From Mycobacteroides immunogenum (GTDB lineage Bacteria > Actinomycetota > Actinomycetes > Mycobacteriales > Mycobacteriaceae): 64,000 nucleotides of DNA. A program made the translations under genes and the position numbers. A model generated the notes under the pieces. That model did no database searches. It saw only the letters and a list, made by a program, of their open reading frames with translations, and was not told where the DNA came from. Where the stretch lies: the NCBI RefSeq assembly GCF_001605725.1, contig NZ_CP011530.1:4030001-4094000 (forward strand). Reading direction: 5' to 3'. This document shows positions 3,556 to 22,103 of the stretch, in pieces; positions within the stretch are counted from its first letter, which is position 1; each line of letters begins with the position of its first letter.

Positions 3556-6345
3556 CTAGCGCTTGCGGCGGGACTTGGTCGGCTTGGGGGTACGGCCCGC
3601 GTTGCGCGCCGCTTCGCGACGCTCACGCCGGGTGCCACCACCCGATGCCGAGGACGCGCCGCCCTCATGACGGGACTGTGCCGATCCGTCCTCGGCCGGA
3701 CCCGAGTAGGTCAGTTCCGGGGTCGACTCGTCAAGTCCCTTGGCCTTCAACTCTCCGTGAGCGGCCTGCGCTGCGGCAGAAGCGAACTCGGCTAGACCCT
3801 CCGGCGCTGCCTGCGGGGCGACTGCGCTGCCCTCCGGCTGCTGGACCTCGACGTTGATGTTGAACAGGAAGCCGACCGACTCCTCCTTGAGGCCGTCAAG
3901 CATCGCGGTGAACATGTCGAAGCCCTCGCGCTGGTACTCGACCAGCGGATCACGCTGCGCCATGGCGCGCAGGCCGATGCCTTCCTTGAGGTAGTCCATC
4001 TCGTAAAGGTGCTCGCGCCACTTGCGGTCGATCACACTGAGCAAGATGTTGCGTTCCAGCTGACGCATCGAGCCCTCGCCCGCCAACCCGTCGATCTCGG
4101 CTTCCCTTGTCTTATAAGCTTTCTTGGCGTCGTCCAGCAGGGCTGCCTTGAGATCGTCGGGGCTCAGCTCATCGGCCTCGCCGTACTCGCTGGACGCGAT
4201 GAGCTCTTCAGGCTTCACACTCACCGGGTACAGCGTCTTGAGCGCGGTCCACAGTGCGTCGAAGTCCCAGTCCTCGTGGTAGCCATCGGCGGTGGCGCCA
4301 TCGACATAGGCGGCAACGGTGTCGGTGATCATCTCCTGGATCTGTGGCTGCAGATCCTCACCGTCGAGGATGCGGCGGCGCTCGGCATAGATGACCTTGC
4401 GCTGCTGGTTCATCACCTCGTCGTACTTGAGAACGTTCTTACGAACCTCGAAGTTCTGCTGCTCGACCTGGGTCTGTGCACTCTTGATGGCATTGGTCAC
4501 CATCTTGGCTTCGATCGGCACATCGTCCGGGACGTTCATGCGCGTCAGAATCGTTTCCAGCGCAGCACCGTTGAAGCGCCGCATCAGTTCGTCTTGCAAC
4601 GACAGGTAGAAGCGAGACTCACCCGGGTCACCCTGGCGGCCGGAGCGTCCACGCAGCTGGTTGTCGATACGGCGCGACTCGTGACGTTCGGTGCCCAGCA
4701 CGTACAGGCCGCCGGCCTCTTGGACCTCCTTGGCCTCGGTCTCGGCGGCGTCCTTGAACTTCTGCAGCGTCTCGTCCCAGGCCTCCTGGTATTCGTCGGG
4801 TGTTTCCACCGGATCCAGGCCCTGATCACGAAGATGCTTGTCCGCCAAGAAGTCCGGGTTACCACCGAGCACGATGTCGGTACCACGGCCGGCCATGTTG
4901 GTGGCCACCGTGATGGCGCCGCGGCGACCGGCCTCGGCGATGATGCCGGCTTCCTGTTCGTGGTACTTGGCGTTGAGGACGTTGTGGGGAACGCGCCGCT
5001 TGGTGAACTGCCGCGAAAGATATTCGGAGCGTTCAACACTCGTGGTACCGATGAGGACGGGCTGCCCCTTCTCGTACCGCTCCACCACGTCGTCGACGAC
5101 GGCGATGTACTTGGCTTCCTCGGTCTTGTAGATGAGGTCTGACTGGTCCTTGCGCACCATCGCCCGGTTGGTCGGTATGGACACCACACCCAGCTTGTAG
5201 ATCTCGTTGAGCTCGGCCGCCTCGGTCTGGGCGGTACCGGTCATGCCGGCGAGCTTCTCGTACAGACGGAAGTAGTTCTGCAGGGTGATGGTGGCCAGGG
5301 TTTGGTTCTCGGCCTTGATCTCCACCCGTTCCTTGGCCTCGATGGCCTGGTGCATGCCCTCGTTGTAGCGGCGGCCCATCAGCACACGGCCGGTGAACTC
5401 GTCGACGATCAGCACCTCGCCCTCGCGCACGATGTAGTCCTTGTCGCGGGTGAACAGCTCCTTGGCCTTGATGGCGTTGTTCAGGTAGCTCACCAGCGGC
5501 GAGTTGGCCGCCTCGTACAGGTTGTCGATGCCCAGCTGGTCCTCGACGAACTCGACCCCCAGCTCGTGCACACCGATGGTGCGCTTGCGGATGTCGACCT
5601 CGTAGTGGGTGTCTTTGTCCATCAGCGGCACGATCCGCGCGAACTCGGTGTACCAATTGGACGCGCCGTCGGCCGGACCCGAGATGATCAGCGGGGTACG
5701 GGCCTCGTCGATGAGGATGGAGTCGACCTCGTCGACGATGGCGAAGGCGTGCCCGCGCTGCACCAGCTCGTCGAGCGAATGGGTCATGTTGTCGCGCAGG
5801 TAATCGAAGCCGAATTCGTTGTTGGTGCCGTAGGTGATGTCGGCGTTGTAGGCATCGCGGCGCTCCAGCGGAGTCATCTGCGACAGGATCACCCCGACCT
5901 CCAGCCCCAGGAAGCGGTGCACGCGACCCATCCACTCCGAGTCACGCTTGGCCAGGTAGTCGTTGACGGTGACGACGTGGGTGCCCTTACCGGCCAGCGC
6001 GTTCAGGTATGCGGGCAGCACACAGGTGAGGGTCTTGCCTTCACCCGTCTTCATCTCGGCGATGTTTCCGGCGTGCAGCGCGGCGCCACCCATGACCTGC
6101 ACATCGAAGTGCCGCTGGCTCAGCACACGCCACGAGGCCTCCCGCGCGACGGCGAATGCCTCGGGCATCAGGTCGTCGAGCGTCTCGCCCTTTTCCAGGC
6201 GCGCCTTGAACTCGCCGGTCTTGGCCTGCAACTCGGTATCGGAGAGCTTCTCGACATCGTCGGACAGGGTGTTGACGTAATCGGCCACGCCCTTGAGACG
6301 CTTGACCATGCGACCTTCACCAAGGCGCAGCAACTTCGACAGCAC
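3556..6345 (-). CDS. secA1: Preprotein translocase ATPase SecA1
   Basis: The essential motor ATPase of general protein export, acting with SecYEG at the membrane. The 929 residues include Walker A MKTGEGKT (98-105), Walker B DEVD (205-208), the helicase-type block [13 protein letters not shown], and the preprotein-binding and scaffold regions. The C-terminus is basic (ending TKSRRKR) and lacks the cysteine-rich zinc motif of the E. coli protein, as is normal in mycobacteria. Its full length and start [12 protein letters not shown] identify it as SecA1, not the shorter accessory SecA2. It starts at GTG 6345 and is divergent from the amidase gene. Confidence 0.97.
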
Positions 6346-20390: not shown

Positions 20391-20530
20391 ACACCAATCC
20401 TGCCGTCCCGTGTGGAGTGCGGTGTGGAATATCCACGAAGCGACGGGACATCTTGCCGCTCGCTGGTGGCGGGTGTTTAATGATGGCGTTTTGTTCAGCA
20501 GTGATTCATGTGCGCTTTGCGCCTACGACT

Positions 20531-20617
20531 AGGAGGTGACGCGACTATGACCGATAGTCAACCTCCGAGTATGCACCGCGCCTTCTAAACGCAGACCTGG
20601 GTCGCGCCCGAAGGCGC
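20531..20617 (+). promoter_or_regulatory. Structured mgtC leader with sequestered ribosome-binding site and downstream hairpin
   Basis: A near-perfect ribosome-binding site AGGAGGTGA starts at 20531. GGAGGT (20532-20537) can pair with ACCTCC (20561-20566). Inside this, GACTAT (20543-20548) pairs perfectly with ATAGTC (20554-20559) around a GACCG loop that contains the end of the leader ATG. A second hairpin follows: GCGCC (20604-20608), CGAA loop, GGCGC (20613-20617), then TCTTGTTG. The arrangement resembles a translation-coupled attenuator in front of mgtC. Confidence 0.6.
20547..20588 (+). CDS. Putative 13-residue mgtC leader peptide
   Basis: The ATG at 20547 opens MTDSQPPSMHRAF and stops at TAA 20586-20588. 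GGAGG lies ten bases upstream, the best ribosome-binding site in the region and better than that of mgtC itself. The peptide has two adjacent prolines. In Salmonella, proline-containing leader ORFs control mgtA and mgtCBR by ribosome stalling; whether this one acts likewise is inference. The start codon is inside an inverted repeat. Confidence 0.55.
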   Translation: MTDSQPPSMHRAF

Positions 20618-20675
20618 TCTTGTTGCACCGACTTTTGTGCACCTCGAAATCACTGCAAGAGAACAGGACCCCGTC

Positions 20676-21398
20676 ATGAGCCATTGGGATGTCATCATCC
20701 GCATCGCCCTCGGATTCGGCTTGGGTTGCGCCATCGGGATCGAACGTCAGTGGCGCGCCAAAAACGCCGGTCTGCGCACCAACGCGCTGGTGTGCCTGGG
20801 TGCGGCACTATTCGTCATCATGGGCGCATACAGCTTCCACGGCCCCGGCGCCGATCCCACTCGCGTTGCGGCGCAGATCGTTTCGGGTATCGGTTTCCTC
20901 GGCGCCGGCGTAATCATGAAGCAAGGGGCCACCATCACCGGCCTGAACACCGCCGCCACCATGTGGGCGACCGCCGCGGTCGGCGCGTTGGCCGGCGGCG
21001 GCATGTACGAGGTCGCGGTCCTCGGCGCGGTGGCCATCGTGCTGGCCAATCTGCTGCTGCGACCGCTGGGTCATCTGCTTGACCGTCAGCCGGCGATCGG
21101 TCGCGAGTCCGACCCCGCCGCGTATCTCTTCGAGGTCACCACCACTGATGAGACCGAGGCACATATCCGGGCGCTCACCGTCCAGGCCGTGAGCCGCCCG
21201 GAGTTCGCGCTGCAATCGGTGCGCTCGTACGACGTGGAGGACGGCAAGCACGTACGGGTAGTCGCGAAGTTGAGCGCCGAGGAGCGTAACGATTCACTGC
21301 TGGAGTCCGCGGTGAGCCGGCTGTCCATGGAACCGGCGGTTTCGGCGGTGCGCTGGCACATCGATCGCGAGGAAGACGTCGAATCCAGCGAGTGGTAA
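20676..21398 (+). CDS. mgtC: MgtC/SapB family membrane protein
   Basis: A 240-residue MgtC protein, which in pathogens supports growth in macrophages and at low magnesium, in part by acting on the F-ATP synthase. The N-terminal domain has the conserved block GCAIGIERQWRAKNAGLRTNALVCLGAALF and four to five membrane helices up to about residue 130, including SGIGFLGAGVIMK. The soluble C-terminal domain (about 150-235) is ACT-like. The ATG at 20676 has AGGA upstream. A structured leader precedes it and a 17-bp inverted repeat follows it. Confidence 0.93.
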   Translation: MSHWDVIIRIALGFGLGCAIGIERQWRAKNAGLRTNALVCLGAALFVIMGAYSFHGPGADPTRVAAQIVSGIGFLGAGVIMKQGATITGLNTAATMWATAAVGALAGGGMYEVAVLGAVAIVLANLLLRPLGHLLDRQPAIGRESDPAAYLFEVTTTDETEAHIRALTVQAVSRPEFALQSVRSYDVEDGKHVRVVAKLSAEERNDSLLESAVSRLSMEPAVSAVRWHIDREEDVESSEW

Positions 21399-21422
21399 GG
21401 ACCGGACCGCTATTCGTCGAAT

Positions 21423-21468
21423 GTGAAGCTACTGCGGGAAACAGGGGGAAATCCCGCAGTAGCTTCAC
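21423..21468. repeat. Perfect 17-bp inverted repeat at the tmk 3' end, probable terminator
   Basis: GTGAAGCTACTGCGGGA (21423-21439) and its exact complement TCCCGCAGTAGCTTCAC (21452-21468) enclose a 12-base loop rich in G and A. It lies 25 bases after the mgtC stop and covers the tmk stop codon (21465-21467). With no T-run it would be a hairpin-only terminator for both convergent genes. Confidence 0.7.
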
Positions 21469-22103
21469 GCTCGGCGAAGCAGTTCGGCCGCCAACGCTTC
21501 CGGGTCGCTACCGTCGGTGACCACCCACGGCCCGCCCCAGTTGCGTTGCGCCAGATCGGCGTATGCCGCGGACACCCGCGACTGCAGATCCGCGTCACGC
21601 TCGTAGGTATCGCGGGTGCGATCACTGTCCTGCTGCTCGCGGCTACGGGCCCGCTCCCCCGCCAGCTCCGGAGAAACCTTCAGGAACACTTGCCAATCCG
21701 GATGCGACAGGCCAAAGCGCTCGTACTCCAGCTGGTAGACCCAGCGCGCCATGTCGCCGTCGCCGTCCTGGTGCAGCCGCGCCGCACCGTAAGCGGCGTT
21801 GGAGGCCACCCACCGATCCAGGATCACCAGATCGTGAGTGCGCGTCAACCCGGTCAACTCTTCCATCGCATCACGGCGATCCAGCGCGAACAGCAATCCC
21901 ATGGCGTACGCGGAAGACACAACGTCGCCGTGCCCACCTTTGAGCGACTCGGCGGCCAGATCGGCATGCACCGAGCGCCCGTAACGCGGGAAATCCAGCG
22001 TCGCAACGGATAAACCCTGGGCGGCACAGCGCGTAGTCAGCGCTCCGGTAAGCGTGCGCTTGCCCGCGCCGTCCACACCCTCGATCGCAATCAGCTGGCC
22101 CAC
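21465..22103 (-). CDS. tmk: Thymidylate kinase
   Basis: A 212-residue kinase that converts dTMP to dTDP. The P-loop is GVDGAGKRT (residues 9-17); the DRW motif is in LDRWVASNAAYGAARL, and the LID region is rich in arginines (GERARSREQQDSDRTRDTYER). The start is GTG 22103. Its stop codon lies within the inverted repeat 21423-21468. In M. tuberculosis tmk sits directly between mtrA and sahH; here it is flanked by insertions on both sides. Confidence 0.95.
   Translation of the reverse strand: MGQLIAIEGVDGAGKRTLTGALTTRCAAQGLSVATLDFPRYGRSVHADLAAESLKGGHGDVVSSAYAMGLLFALDRRDAMEELTGLTRTHDLVILDRWVASNAAYGAARLHQDGDGDMARWVYQLEYERFGLSHPDWQVFLKVSPELAGERARSREQQDSDRTRDTYERDADLQSRVSAAYADLAQRNWGGPWVVTDGSDPEALAAELLRRA

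What the first reader, a model, noticed from the sequence alone, without database searches (positions are those of the whole stretch)
20531..20675. mgtC leader: 13-codon ORF with both its ribosome-binding site and start codon in nested inverted repeats, then a hairpin
A near-ideal AGGAGGTGA precedes an ATG that opens MTDSQPPSMHRAF. GGAGGT can pair with ACCTCC inside the ORF, and GACTAT/ATAGTC forms an inner perfect stem around the start. A GCGCC/GGCGC hairpin followed by a T-rich stretch lies between the ORF and mgtC. Translation of the peptide would open the first structure. The Pro-Pro pair recalls the stalling leaders of Salmonella mgtA and mgtC. I know of no such leader described for mycobacterial mgtC.
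Basis: partly seen in the sequence, partly recalled or inferred. Interest (0 to 1): 0.75.

Follow-up and report, generated by a model that had tools for sequence, protein, structure and literature searches.

The report
mgtC leader with gated upstream ORF
In Mycobacteroides bacteria the virulence-linked gene mgtC is preceded by a tiny upstream reading frame whose ribosome-binding site is locked in a strictly conserved hairpin, probably a translation-controlled switch related in spirit, perhaps by descent, to the magnesium-riboswitch leaders of other mycobacteria.

Summary
The 13-codon ORF (20547-20588), its AGGAGGTGA and the hairpin over the SD are present in all 11 distinct Mycobacteroides leaders compared. 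The hairpin block varies at 1 of 40 sites, against 33 of 71 just upstream. It folds better than 200 of 200 shuffles, and its SD is more occluded than at any of 44 other GGAGGTGA-ATG sites of the genome.

The GCGCC/GGCGC hairpin is not exceptional in energy. Its right arm pairs better with the last codons of the ORF: an 8-bp helix, probability 0.88 or more in 10 of 11 leaders.

A uORF upstream of M. abscessus mgtC is already in print from Ribo-seq (PMC4974804), so 'none described' is wrong. Pro-Pro stalling is not supported: the CCT CCG codons are the anti-SD.

M-box riboswitches, often with a similar uORF, precede mgtC homologues in other mycobacteria and related genera. Here no M-box is found, and a profile test of uORF homology failed.

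Best reading: a translation-gated cis-acting leader, perhaps an M-box leader that lost its aptamer. Signal and sign are inferred.

The parts
20493..20508 (+). Conserved direct repeat GTTCAGCAGTGATTCA with 11-bp period (GTTCA-N6-GTTCA in most relatives); possible response-regulator site or none
   Evidence: Alignment; the block 20493-20511 varies at 3 of 19 sites. With one mismatch the pattern is no rarer than chance in the window: 3 found, 2.32 expected.
20531..20539 (+). Shine-Dalgarno sequence AGGAGGTGA of the upstream ORF, invariant
   Evidence: 11 of 11 leaders identical. GGAGGTGA-N4-14-ATG occurs 47 times in the genome.
20532..20566 (+). Hairpin 1: GGAGGT (20532-20537) with ACCTCC (20561-20566) and inner GACTAT (20543-20548) with ATAGTC (20554-20559); hides the SD. 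A near-equal conformer pairs GGAGGTGAC with GTCAACCTCC and leaves the AUG in the loop
   Evidence: Fold z -3.05, 0 of 200 shuffles; suboptimal folds; 1 of 40 sites of 20531-20570 variable over 11 sequences. In full leaders the outer stem is 0.58 or more in 9 of 11 (0.45 in L008, 0.26 in L015), the inner stem below 0.5 in 8 of 11.
20547..20588 (+). Upstream ORF, 13 codons, MTDSQPPSMHRAF (relatives mostly MSDSQPPSIHSAF)
   Evidence: Start, frame and stop kept in 11 of 11 leaders. A ribosome-protected uORF upstream of M. abscessus mgtC is reported in PMC4974804; its coordinates could not be read.
20578..20617 (+). Helix A: GCGCCTTC (20578-20585, last codons of the ORF) with GAAGGCGC (20610-20617), enclosing a small stem
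   Evidence: z -3.10, 2 of 200 shuffles; all 8 pairs invariant; pair probability 0.88 or more in 10 of 11 sequences, 0.20 in L004.
20604..20624 (+). Alternative small hairpin B (GCGCC-CGAA-GGCGC) with T-rich tail TCTTGTT; excludes helix A
   Evidence: Terminator-like in a pattern scan; not exceptional in energy (z -0.23); probability 0.00-0.09 in full leaders, above 0.9 in 3 of 11 when the part a ribosome at the stop would cover is cut off.
20676..21398 (+). mgtC, 240 aa; weak SD AGGA 20665-20668
   Evidence: Pfam MgtC 7.7e-39; the only MgtC-family match found in the genome; 96% identical, over 62% of its length, to a partial M. abscessus protein (P0024). MAB_3593 is listed as 240 aa in PMC11925935 (passage).

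Best explanation
A cis-acting, translation-gated leader of mgtC. Shown from sequence: a 13-codon ORF with a very strong SD, start and stop is kept in all 11 Mycobacteroides leaders compared; the SD is predicted to lie in a hairpin closed by the ORF's own codons 5-7; and the last codons of the ORF are one arm of a second, stronger predicted helix. Inferred: hairpin 1 sets how often ribosomes enter. A ribosome that reaches the stop codon covers the left arm of helix A and unfolds it, while hairpin 1 can close again behind it, so entry resets after each ribosome. With the gate shut, helix A forms just before a U-rich stretch and transcription or translation of mgtC is held down (pausing, Rho or weak intrinsic termination). 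With the gate open, the leader is cleared and mgtC is made. The signal is probably low Mg2+ or a matching intracellular cue. The peptide is probably not functional. The sign of the effect is the least certain step.
For: ORF and hairpin sequence present in 11 of 11 distinct Mycobacteroides leaders and single copy: the 35-nt block is found once each in 10 of 396 sampled genus genomes, all 10 inside the leader-mgtC match. Hairpin 1: 1 of 40 sites variable; Fisher p 2.7e-7 against upstream 33 of 71, 2.4e-4 against the rest of the leader, 9.1e-5 against mgtC codon positions 1+2, 112 of 400. SD occlusion exceeds 44 of 44 matched sites. Helix A: z -3.10, 8 invariant pairs. Codons 3-8 keep even their third bases. 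Translation in vivo: ribosome-protected uORF reported upstream of M. abscessus mgtC (PMC4974804). M. [quoted passage not shown] L002, L008, L013), so some other element should respond. Precedent for the geometry: Salmonella mgtP. Precedent for SD masking of a uORF plus Rho in a mycobacterial Mg2+ leader: PMC12810186.
Against: Stems are invariant, so no covariation supports them. The transcription start is unknown: no sigma-70-type promoter was found by scan. The Ribo-seq dataset could not be read, so it is not proven that the published uORF is this one, and no locus named M. abscessus is among the leaders compared. mgtC SD sequestration (helix F) is not predicted consistently (above 0.5 in 2 of 11 full leaders, 4 of 11 with the upstream part cut off), so no direct coupling to mgtC initiation is shown. 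Hairpin 1's outer stem falls to 0.45 and 0.26 in L008 and L015, its inner stem is below 0.5 in 8 of 11, and helix A falls to 0.20 in L004. In Salmonella mgtP, low proline, that is incomplete translation, raises transcription, which suggests the opposite sign.
Confidence: 0.5

Rival explanations
1. M-box descendant: the leader is an M-box-uORF2-mgtC leader that lost its Mg2+ aptamer; the uORF belongs to the Rv1805A/uORF2 family, and an in-ORF anti-SD replaced the aptamer's control. (Compatible with the best explanation as its history.)
For: M-box and a uORF2 lie 0.2-0.6 kb upstream of mgtC homologues in L022, L024, L025, about 0.25-0.3 kb upstream in L096 and L098 and about 1.3 kb upstream in L095, other genera with MgtC 70-71% identical; L097 and L099 have the M-box but no such uORF was found. 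L096/L098 uORFs read (M)DDPPS after GAGGAGGTGACCACC; here MTDSQPPS after AGGAGGTGACGCGACT. The pattern GGAGGTGA-N-TG-N-GATAGTC gives 3 hits in the genome: two M-box uORF2s and this leader, control 0 (pattern chosen after seeing them). In a tree of 48 MgtC proteins, M-box-linked genes occur in three separate places, and Mycobacteroides (11 rows, one clade, 100/99) shares a weakly supported branch (84/87) with L095-L099 among others.
Against: Profile R1 from 29 uORF2 starts finds the 3 M-box uORF2s of this genome (E 2.9e-11 to 1.7e-4) but not this leader at E 10 (150 of 2356 first-look candidates scored), nor any of 11 mgtC leaders; with filters off it gives 3.1 bits, from the SD alone. Against 44 matched sites, similarity is only in the upper ranks: 5, 3 and 3 of 44 as good by three scores. 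Many mgtC loci have no M-box within the stretch held: 16 of 19 Mycobacterium loci and 7 of 12 of other genera. L101, which shares the weakly supported branch, has none in the stretch held.
Confidence: 0.35
2. Amino-acid or Pro-Pro stalling attenuator in the manner of Salmonella mgtP/mgtA: a ribosome paused at Pro-Pro chooses between helix A and hairpin B.
For: Two adjacent Pro codons in 13; ORF end overlaps a stem, as in mgtP; the GCGC and GAAGGCGC arms are invariant; terminator-like sites exceed shuffles, 4 against 0.2, B among them.
Against: The Pro codons are explained by the anti-SD; only two of them against three consecutive in mgtP; B is not stable beyond chance and exceeds 0.9 in only 3 of 11 even with the upstream part removed.
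Confidence: 0.12
3. DNA operator: the inverted repeats are a protein-binding site, not RNA structure.
For: Extreme conservation of 40 bp over an inverted repeat.
Against: Outer and inner repeats are not concentric (5 nt on the left, 1 on the right), which suits an RNA internal loop and not a DNA dyad; the conserved parts coincide with SD, start and frame.
Confidence: 0.08
4. The uORF encodes a functional small peptide and the structure is incidental.
For: Frame kept in 11 of 11; a regulatory or structural role of the peptide is hypothesised for Rv1805A (PMC12810186, section 11).
Against: Five of six counted substitutions, at codons 2 and 9-11, change the residue (T/S, M/I, H/P, R/S/G), while codons 3-8 show no change, synonymous or not.
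Confidence: 0.05

Closest known systems
Ribosome-protected uORF upstream of mgtC (MAB_3593) in M. abscessus (PMC4974804; section 8 and passages read)
   Same: Same gene and genus; the text names a translated uORF in the mgtC leader. Very likely this ORF.
   Different: The text I read gives no sequence, structure, conservation or mechanism for it; Dataset S2 could not be read.
M-box-uORF2 (Rv1805A) leader of the M. tuberculosis pe20...mgtC operon (PMC12810186; abstract, sections 4 and 11, passages read)
   Same: A Mg2+-linked leader ahead of mgtC, a strong SD of a short conserved ORF that is masked by an anti-SD, a conserved proline at position 7, control passed on to downstream genes.
   Different: No aptamer here; the anti-SD lies inside the ORF and not upstream; one uORF seen and not two; mgtC follows directly, without pe/ppe genes.
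Salmonella mgtCBR leader, mgtM/mgtP tandem attenuators (PMC3641672; passages read)
   Same: Short ORF ahead of mgtC whose last codons form one arm of a stem-loop; consecutive Pro codons; stem-loops that do not resemble classic intrinsic terminators.
   Different: One ORF seen and not two, no sequence resemblance sought or seen, 13 codons with two Pro against 17 with three; SD hidden in a hairpin; Pro codons double as anti-SD.
M. tuberculosis ilvB1 uORF attenuator (PMC13236596; passages read)
   Same: Translated uORF in a mycobacterial leader with mutually exclusive hairpins.
   Different: Senses branched-chain amino acids by regulatory codons and ends in a U-tract terminator; no SD-occluding hairpin in the passages read.

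Membership tests
M-box riboswitch (RF00380) | Conserved aptamer in the leader | tested here: not met
   No Rfam match of any family up to E 10 in 20391-20700, while the same genome has 3 M-boxes over cut-off elsewhere.
uORF2 / Rv1805A family of M-box leaders | Sequence similarity of start region to known uORF2s | tested here: inconclusive
   Profile R1 misses it; shared SD, GATAGTC and a D..PPS motif are suggestive; 3-5 of 44 matched sites score as well.
uORF2 / Rv1805A family of M-box leaders | Proline at peptide position 7 (feature named in PMC12810186) | tested here: met
   P7 in 11 of 11 leaders; weak on its own because the codon is part of the anti-SD.
Salmonella-type mgtC leader attenuator | Proline-containing short ORF whose last codons lie in a leader stem | tested here: met
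   Last codons form the left arm of helix A; two Pro, fewer than in mgtP.
Salmonella-type mgtC leader attenuator | Two tandem short ORFs (mgtM, mgtP) | tested here: inconclusive
   One conserved ORF with a strong SD is seen in the aligned leader; a second ORF without a strong SD was not searched for systematically.
Salmonella-type mgtC leader attenuator | Response to proline-charged tRNA or ATP | not testable with these tools
   Needs expression data.
Intrinsic-terminator attenuator | Stable GC-rich hairpin with U-tract, exclusive with an antiterminator | tested here: inconclusive
   Hairpin B is found by pattern but is not stable beyond chance; helix A precedes the same UCUUGUU tract.

The most novel reading that the evidence does not exclude
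A riboswitch leader that lost its aptamer but kept its uORF: in Mycobacteroides the Mg2+ M-box ahead of mgtC was replaced by a self-contained switch in which the uORF carries its own anti-SD as sense codons (Gln-Pro-Pro), so that translation itself is the sensor that opens the mgtC leader.
Probability: 0.25. Interest if true: 0.65.

Novelty: new variant of a known kind. Interest (0 to 1): 0.45.

Why it matters
mgtC of M. abscessus is reported to respond to low Mg2+ and to macrophages, and no M-box was found at mgtC in the Mycobacteroides loci scanned here, so what responds is open. A strictly conserved uORF that hides its own SD gives a concrete, testable element. If it descends from an M-box leader, it shows how riboswitch control can pass to translation-gated control while the regulated gene stays the same.

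Tried and rejected
Covariation: 0 of 50 predicted pairs changed on both sides, so not usable. mgtC SD sequestration by CUUGUU:AACAGG, predicted by the consensus fold, was not adopted: above 0.5 in only 2 of 11 full leaders and 4 of 11 truncated ones, and the 3' segment is z +0.32. Leaders of other mgtC loci were read in 20 Mycobacterium loci plus L009 and L010; the 19-nt SD-start block occurs in none of them, and 3 of the 19 scanned have an M-box within the roughly 1.5 kb held upstream (L040, scanned, has none). Profile homology to uORF2 was negative. No sigma-70 promoter was found. A PhoP or RegX3 site is left open: the GTTCA repeat is not beyond chance by count; the GTTCACC PHO box of S. coelicolor is from PMC4415409 passages, its use by RegX3 is recalled. 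The GTG at 20637 as mgtC start was rejected: 10 of 11 leaders lack one base between it and the ATG. A DNA operator was rejected for the non-concentric repeats. In-print searches; of the papers listed I opened only some, and no passage I saw describes this hairpin. The first tree (34 rows) lacked the closer relatives found later and was replaced (48 rows).

Rows dropped: L021 left out of the trees (130 aa), L010 and the near-identical L092, L093 not entered; 2 of 35 M-box loci held (L053 cut by its contig end, L070) gave no uORF2; 4 Mycobacteroides rows of 33 left out of model R1 by design. A first regex extraction missed most loci and was replaced. Loci that repeat the same genome (L012, L016-L020) were not counted twice.

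Full report
What is there. The window lies in a 5.57-Mb single-contig genome of the Mycobacteroides group: MgtC is 96% identical to that of M. franklinii, 95% to one labelled M. saopaulense, and 96%, over 62% of its length, to a partial M. abscessus protein. mgtC (20676-21398) is the only MgtC-family gene found in the genome. It stands between an AMP-binding (acyl-CoA-synthetase-like) gene and a thymidylate-kinase-like gene, both on the minus strand.

Conservation. Eleven distinct leaders were aligned: window, L002-L008, L013-L015. All keep SD, start, frame and stop. The block 20531-20570 varies at 1 of 40 sites; the stretch 20400-20470 at 33 of 71; mgtC codon positions 1, 2, 3 at 58, 54 and 154 of 200 each. 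Fisher tests give 2.7e-7, 2.4e-4 (rest of the leader) and 9.1e-5 (codon positions 1+2). The 35-nt core, with up to 3 mismatches, occurs in 10 of 396 sampled genomes of the genus, once each, all inside the ten leader-wide matches at mgtC. Because the stems never vary, covariation is silent.

RNA structure. Hairpin 1 is stable beyond shuffles (z -3.05) and its SD is the most occluded of 45 GGAGGTGA-ATG sites of the genome, 44 of them controls. Its inner part has two near-equal forms, and in full leaders the stem around the start codon is below 0.5 in 8 of 11, while the outer, SD-hiding stem is 0.58 or more in 9 of 11. Helix A joins the end of the ORF to 20610-20617 (z -3.10) and dominates full-leader ensembles in 10 of 11. 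A ribosome with the stop codon in its A site would cover the left arm of helix A but leave ACCTCC behind it free; this geometry is my inference from a footprint of roughly 26-28 nt (about 26 is given in PMC13236596 passages).

Coding versus RNA constraint. ORF substitutions are at codon 2 (window only), 9 (window, L002), 10 (L003) and 11 (window, L004); five of the six alter the residue. Codons 3-8 show none, third bases included, against 154 of 200 variable third positions in mgtC. The anti-SD is read as Gln-Pro-Pro. This argues for RNA function and removes the reason to call Pro-Pro a stall signal. The count of changes is small.

What is known. Ribo-seq work on M. abscessus lists uORFs upstream of mgtC (MAB_3593) and mgtE (PMC4974804, section 8). 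In M. tuberculosis an M-box controls a conserved uORF ahead of pe20...mgtC through SD masking and Rho (PMC12810186). Salmonella mgtP is a proline-rich uORF whose last codons form a stem arm (PMC3641672 passages). A review states that M. [quoted passage not shown] the primary paper is not held. The library searches led to no passage describing this hairpin; I opened only part of the papers they list.

Relation to M-box leaders. The genome has three M-boxes, none in this leader, each followed by a uORF2. 33 of the 35 M-box loci I held have one. M-boxes stand upstream of mgtC homologues in L022, L024, L025 of 19 Mycobacterium mgtC loci scanned (L040 has none), and in L095-L099 of the 12 loci of other genera scanned (MgtC of these loci 57-75% identical to the window's). 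A third, distant MgtC group (L085-L089) also lies downstream of M-boxes, in several of these some 6 kb away as in the pe20 operon. L096 and L098 have an intervening ORF reading DDPPS after GAGGAGGTGA. That makes a shared history attractive. Direct tests are not decisive: the uORF2 profile recovers the genome's own three M-box uORF2s and not this ORF, and 3 to 5 of 44 matched sites are as similar. In the tree of 48 MgtC proteins Mycobacteroides is one clade (100/99) on a weakly resolved branch with L101, which has no M-box in the stretch held, and a set that includes L095-L099; it neither proves nor excludes loss of an M-box.

Mechanism and confidence. I hold a translation-gated cis leader at 0.5, with M-box descent as its possible history at 0.35. 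The sign (ORF translation permits mgtC) is inferred from helix A lying just before UCUUGUU and could be reversed. The link of the signal to Mg2+ is inferred only from the published induction.

Verdict. Observation confirmed; interpretation partly supported; the existence of a uORF there was already in print; the SD-gating hairpin, its invariance, the ORF-helix overlap and the M-box context are what this analysis adds.

Noticed in passing
window 21408-21466 (+) and 21425-21490 (-): Near-perfect inverted repeat between mgtC and the thymidylate-kinase-like gene matches the Rfam family Ms_IGR-8 on both strands (47.1 bits, over the cut-off, on +; 39.7, below it, on -); looks like a two-way terminator. 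L008 has matches on both strands at 4369-4452, away from its mgtC.
   Followed up: partly
window 20493-20508: Direct repeat GTTCA with 11-bp period, conserved in relatives, resembling the GTTCACC PHO box of Streptomyces; possible OmpR-family regulation of mgtC.
   Followed up: partly
window 20640-20645: Second anti-SD-like CACCTC upstream of mgtC that could also pair with the uORF SD; altered in L002 and L008 and one base short in L005.
   Followed up: no
L041, L042, L043 (other parts of the same genome): Three M-box riboswitches, each followed by a uORF2 with GGAGGTGAG and an N-terminus like MxSG(D/G)SP; what lies further downstream was not annotated.
   Followed up: partly
L097 1195-1366, L099 1212-1381: M-box placed directly ahead of mgtC in other genera, without a GGAGGTGA-led uORF found: a simpler M-box-mgtC leader.
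   Followed up: partly
L024 2158-2326 (-) and 2822-3004 (+); L025 756-924 (+) and 211-393 (-): Two divergent M-boxes in one neighbourhood next to mgtC.
   Followed up: no
window 20452-20473: Terminator-like inverted repeat upstream of the leader repeat, about where a promoter might be expected.
   Followed up: no
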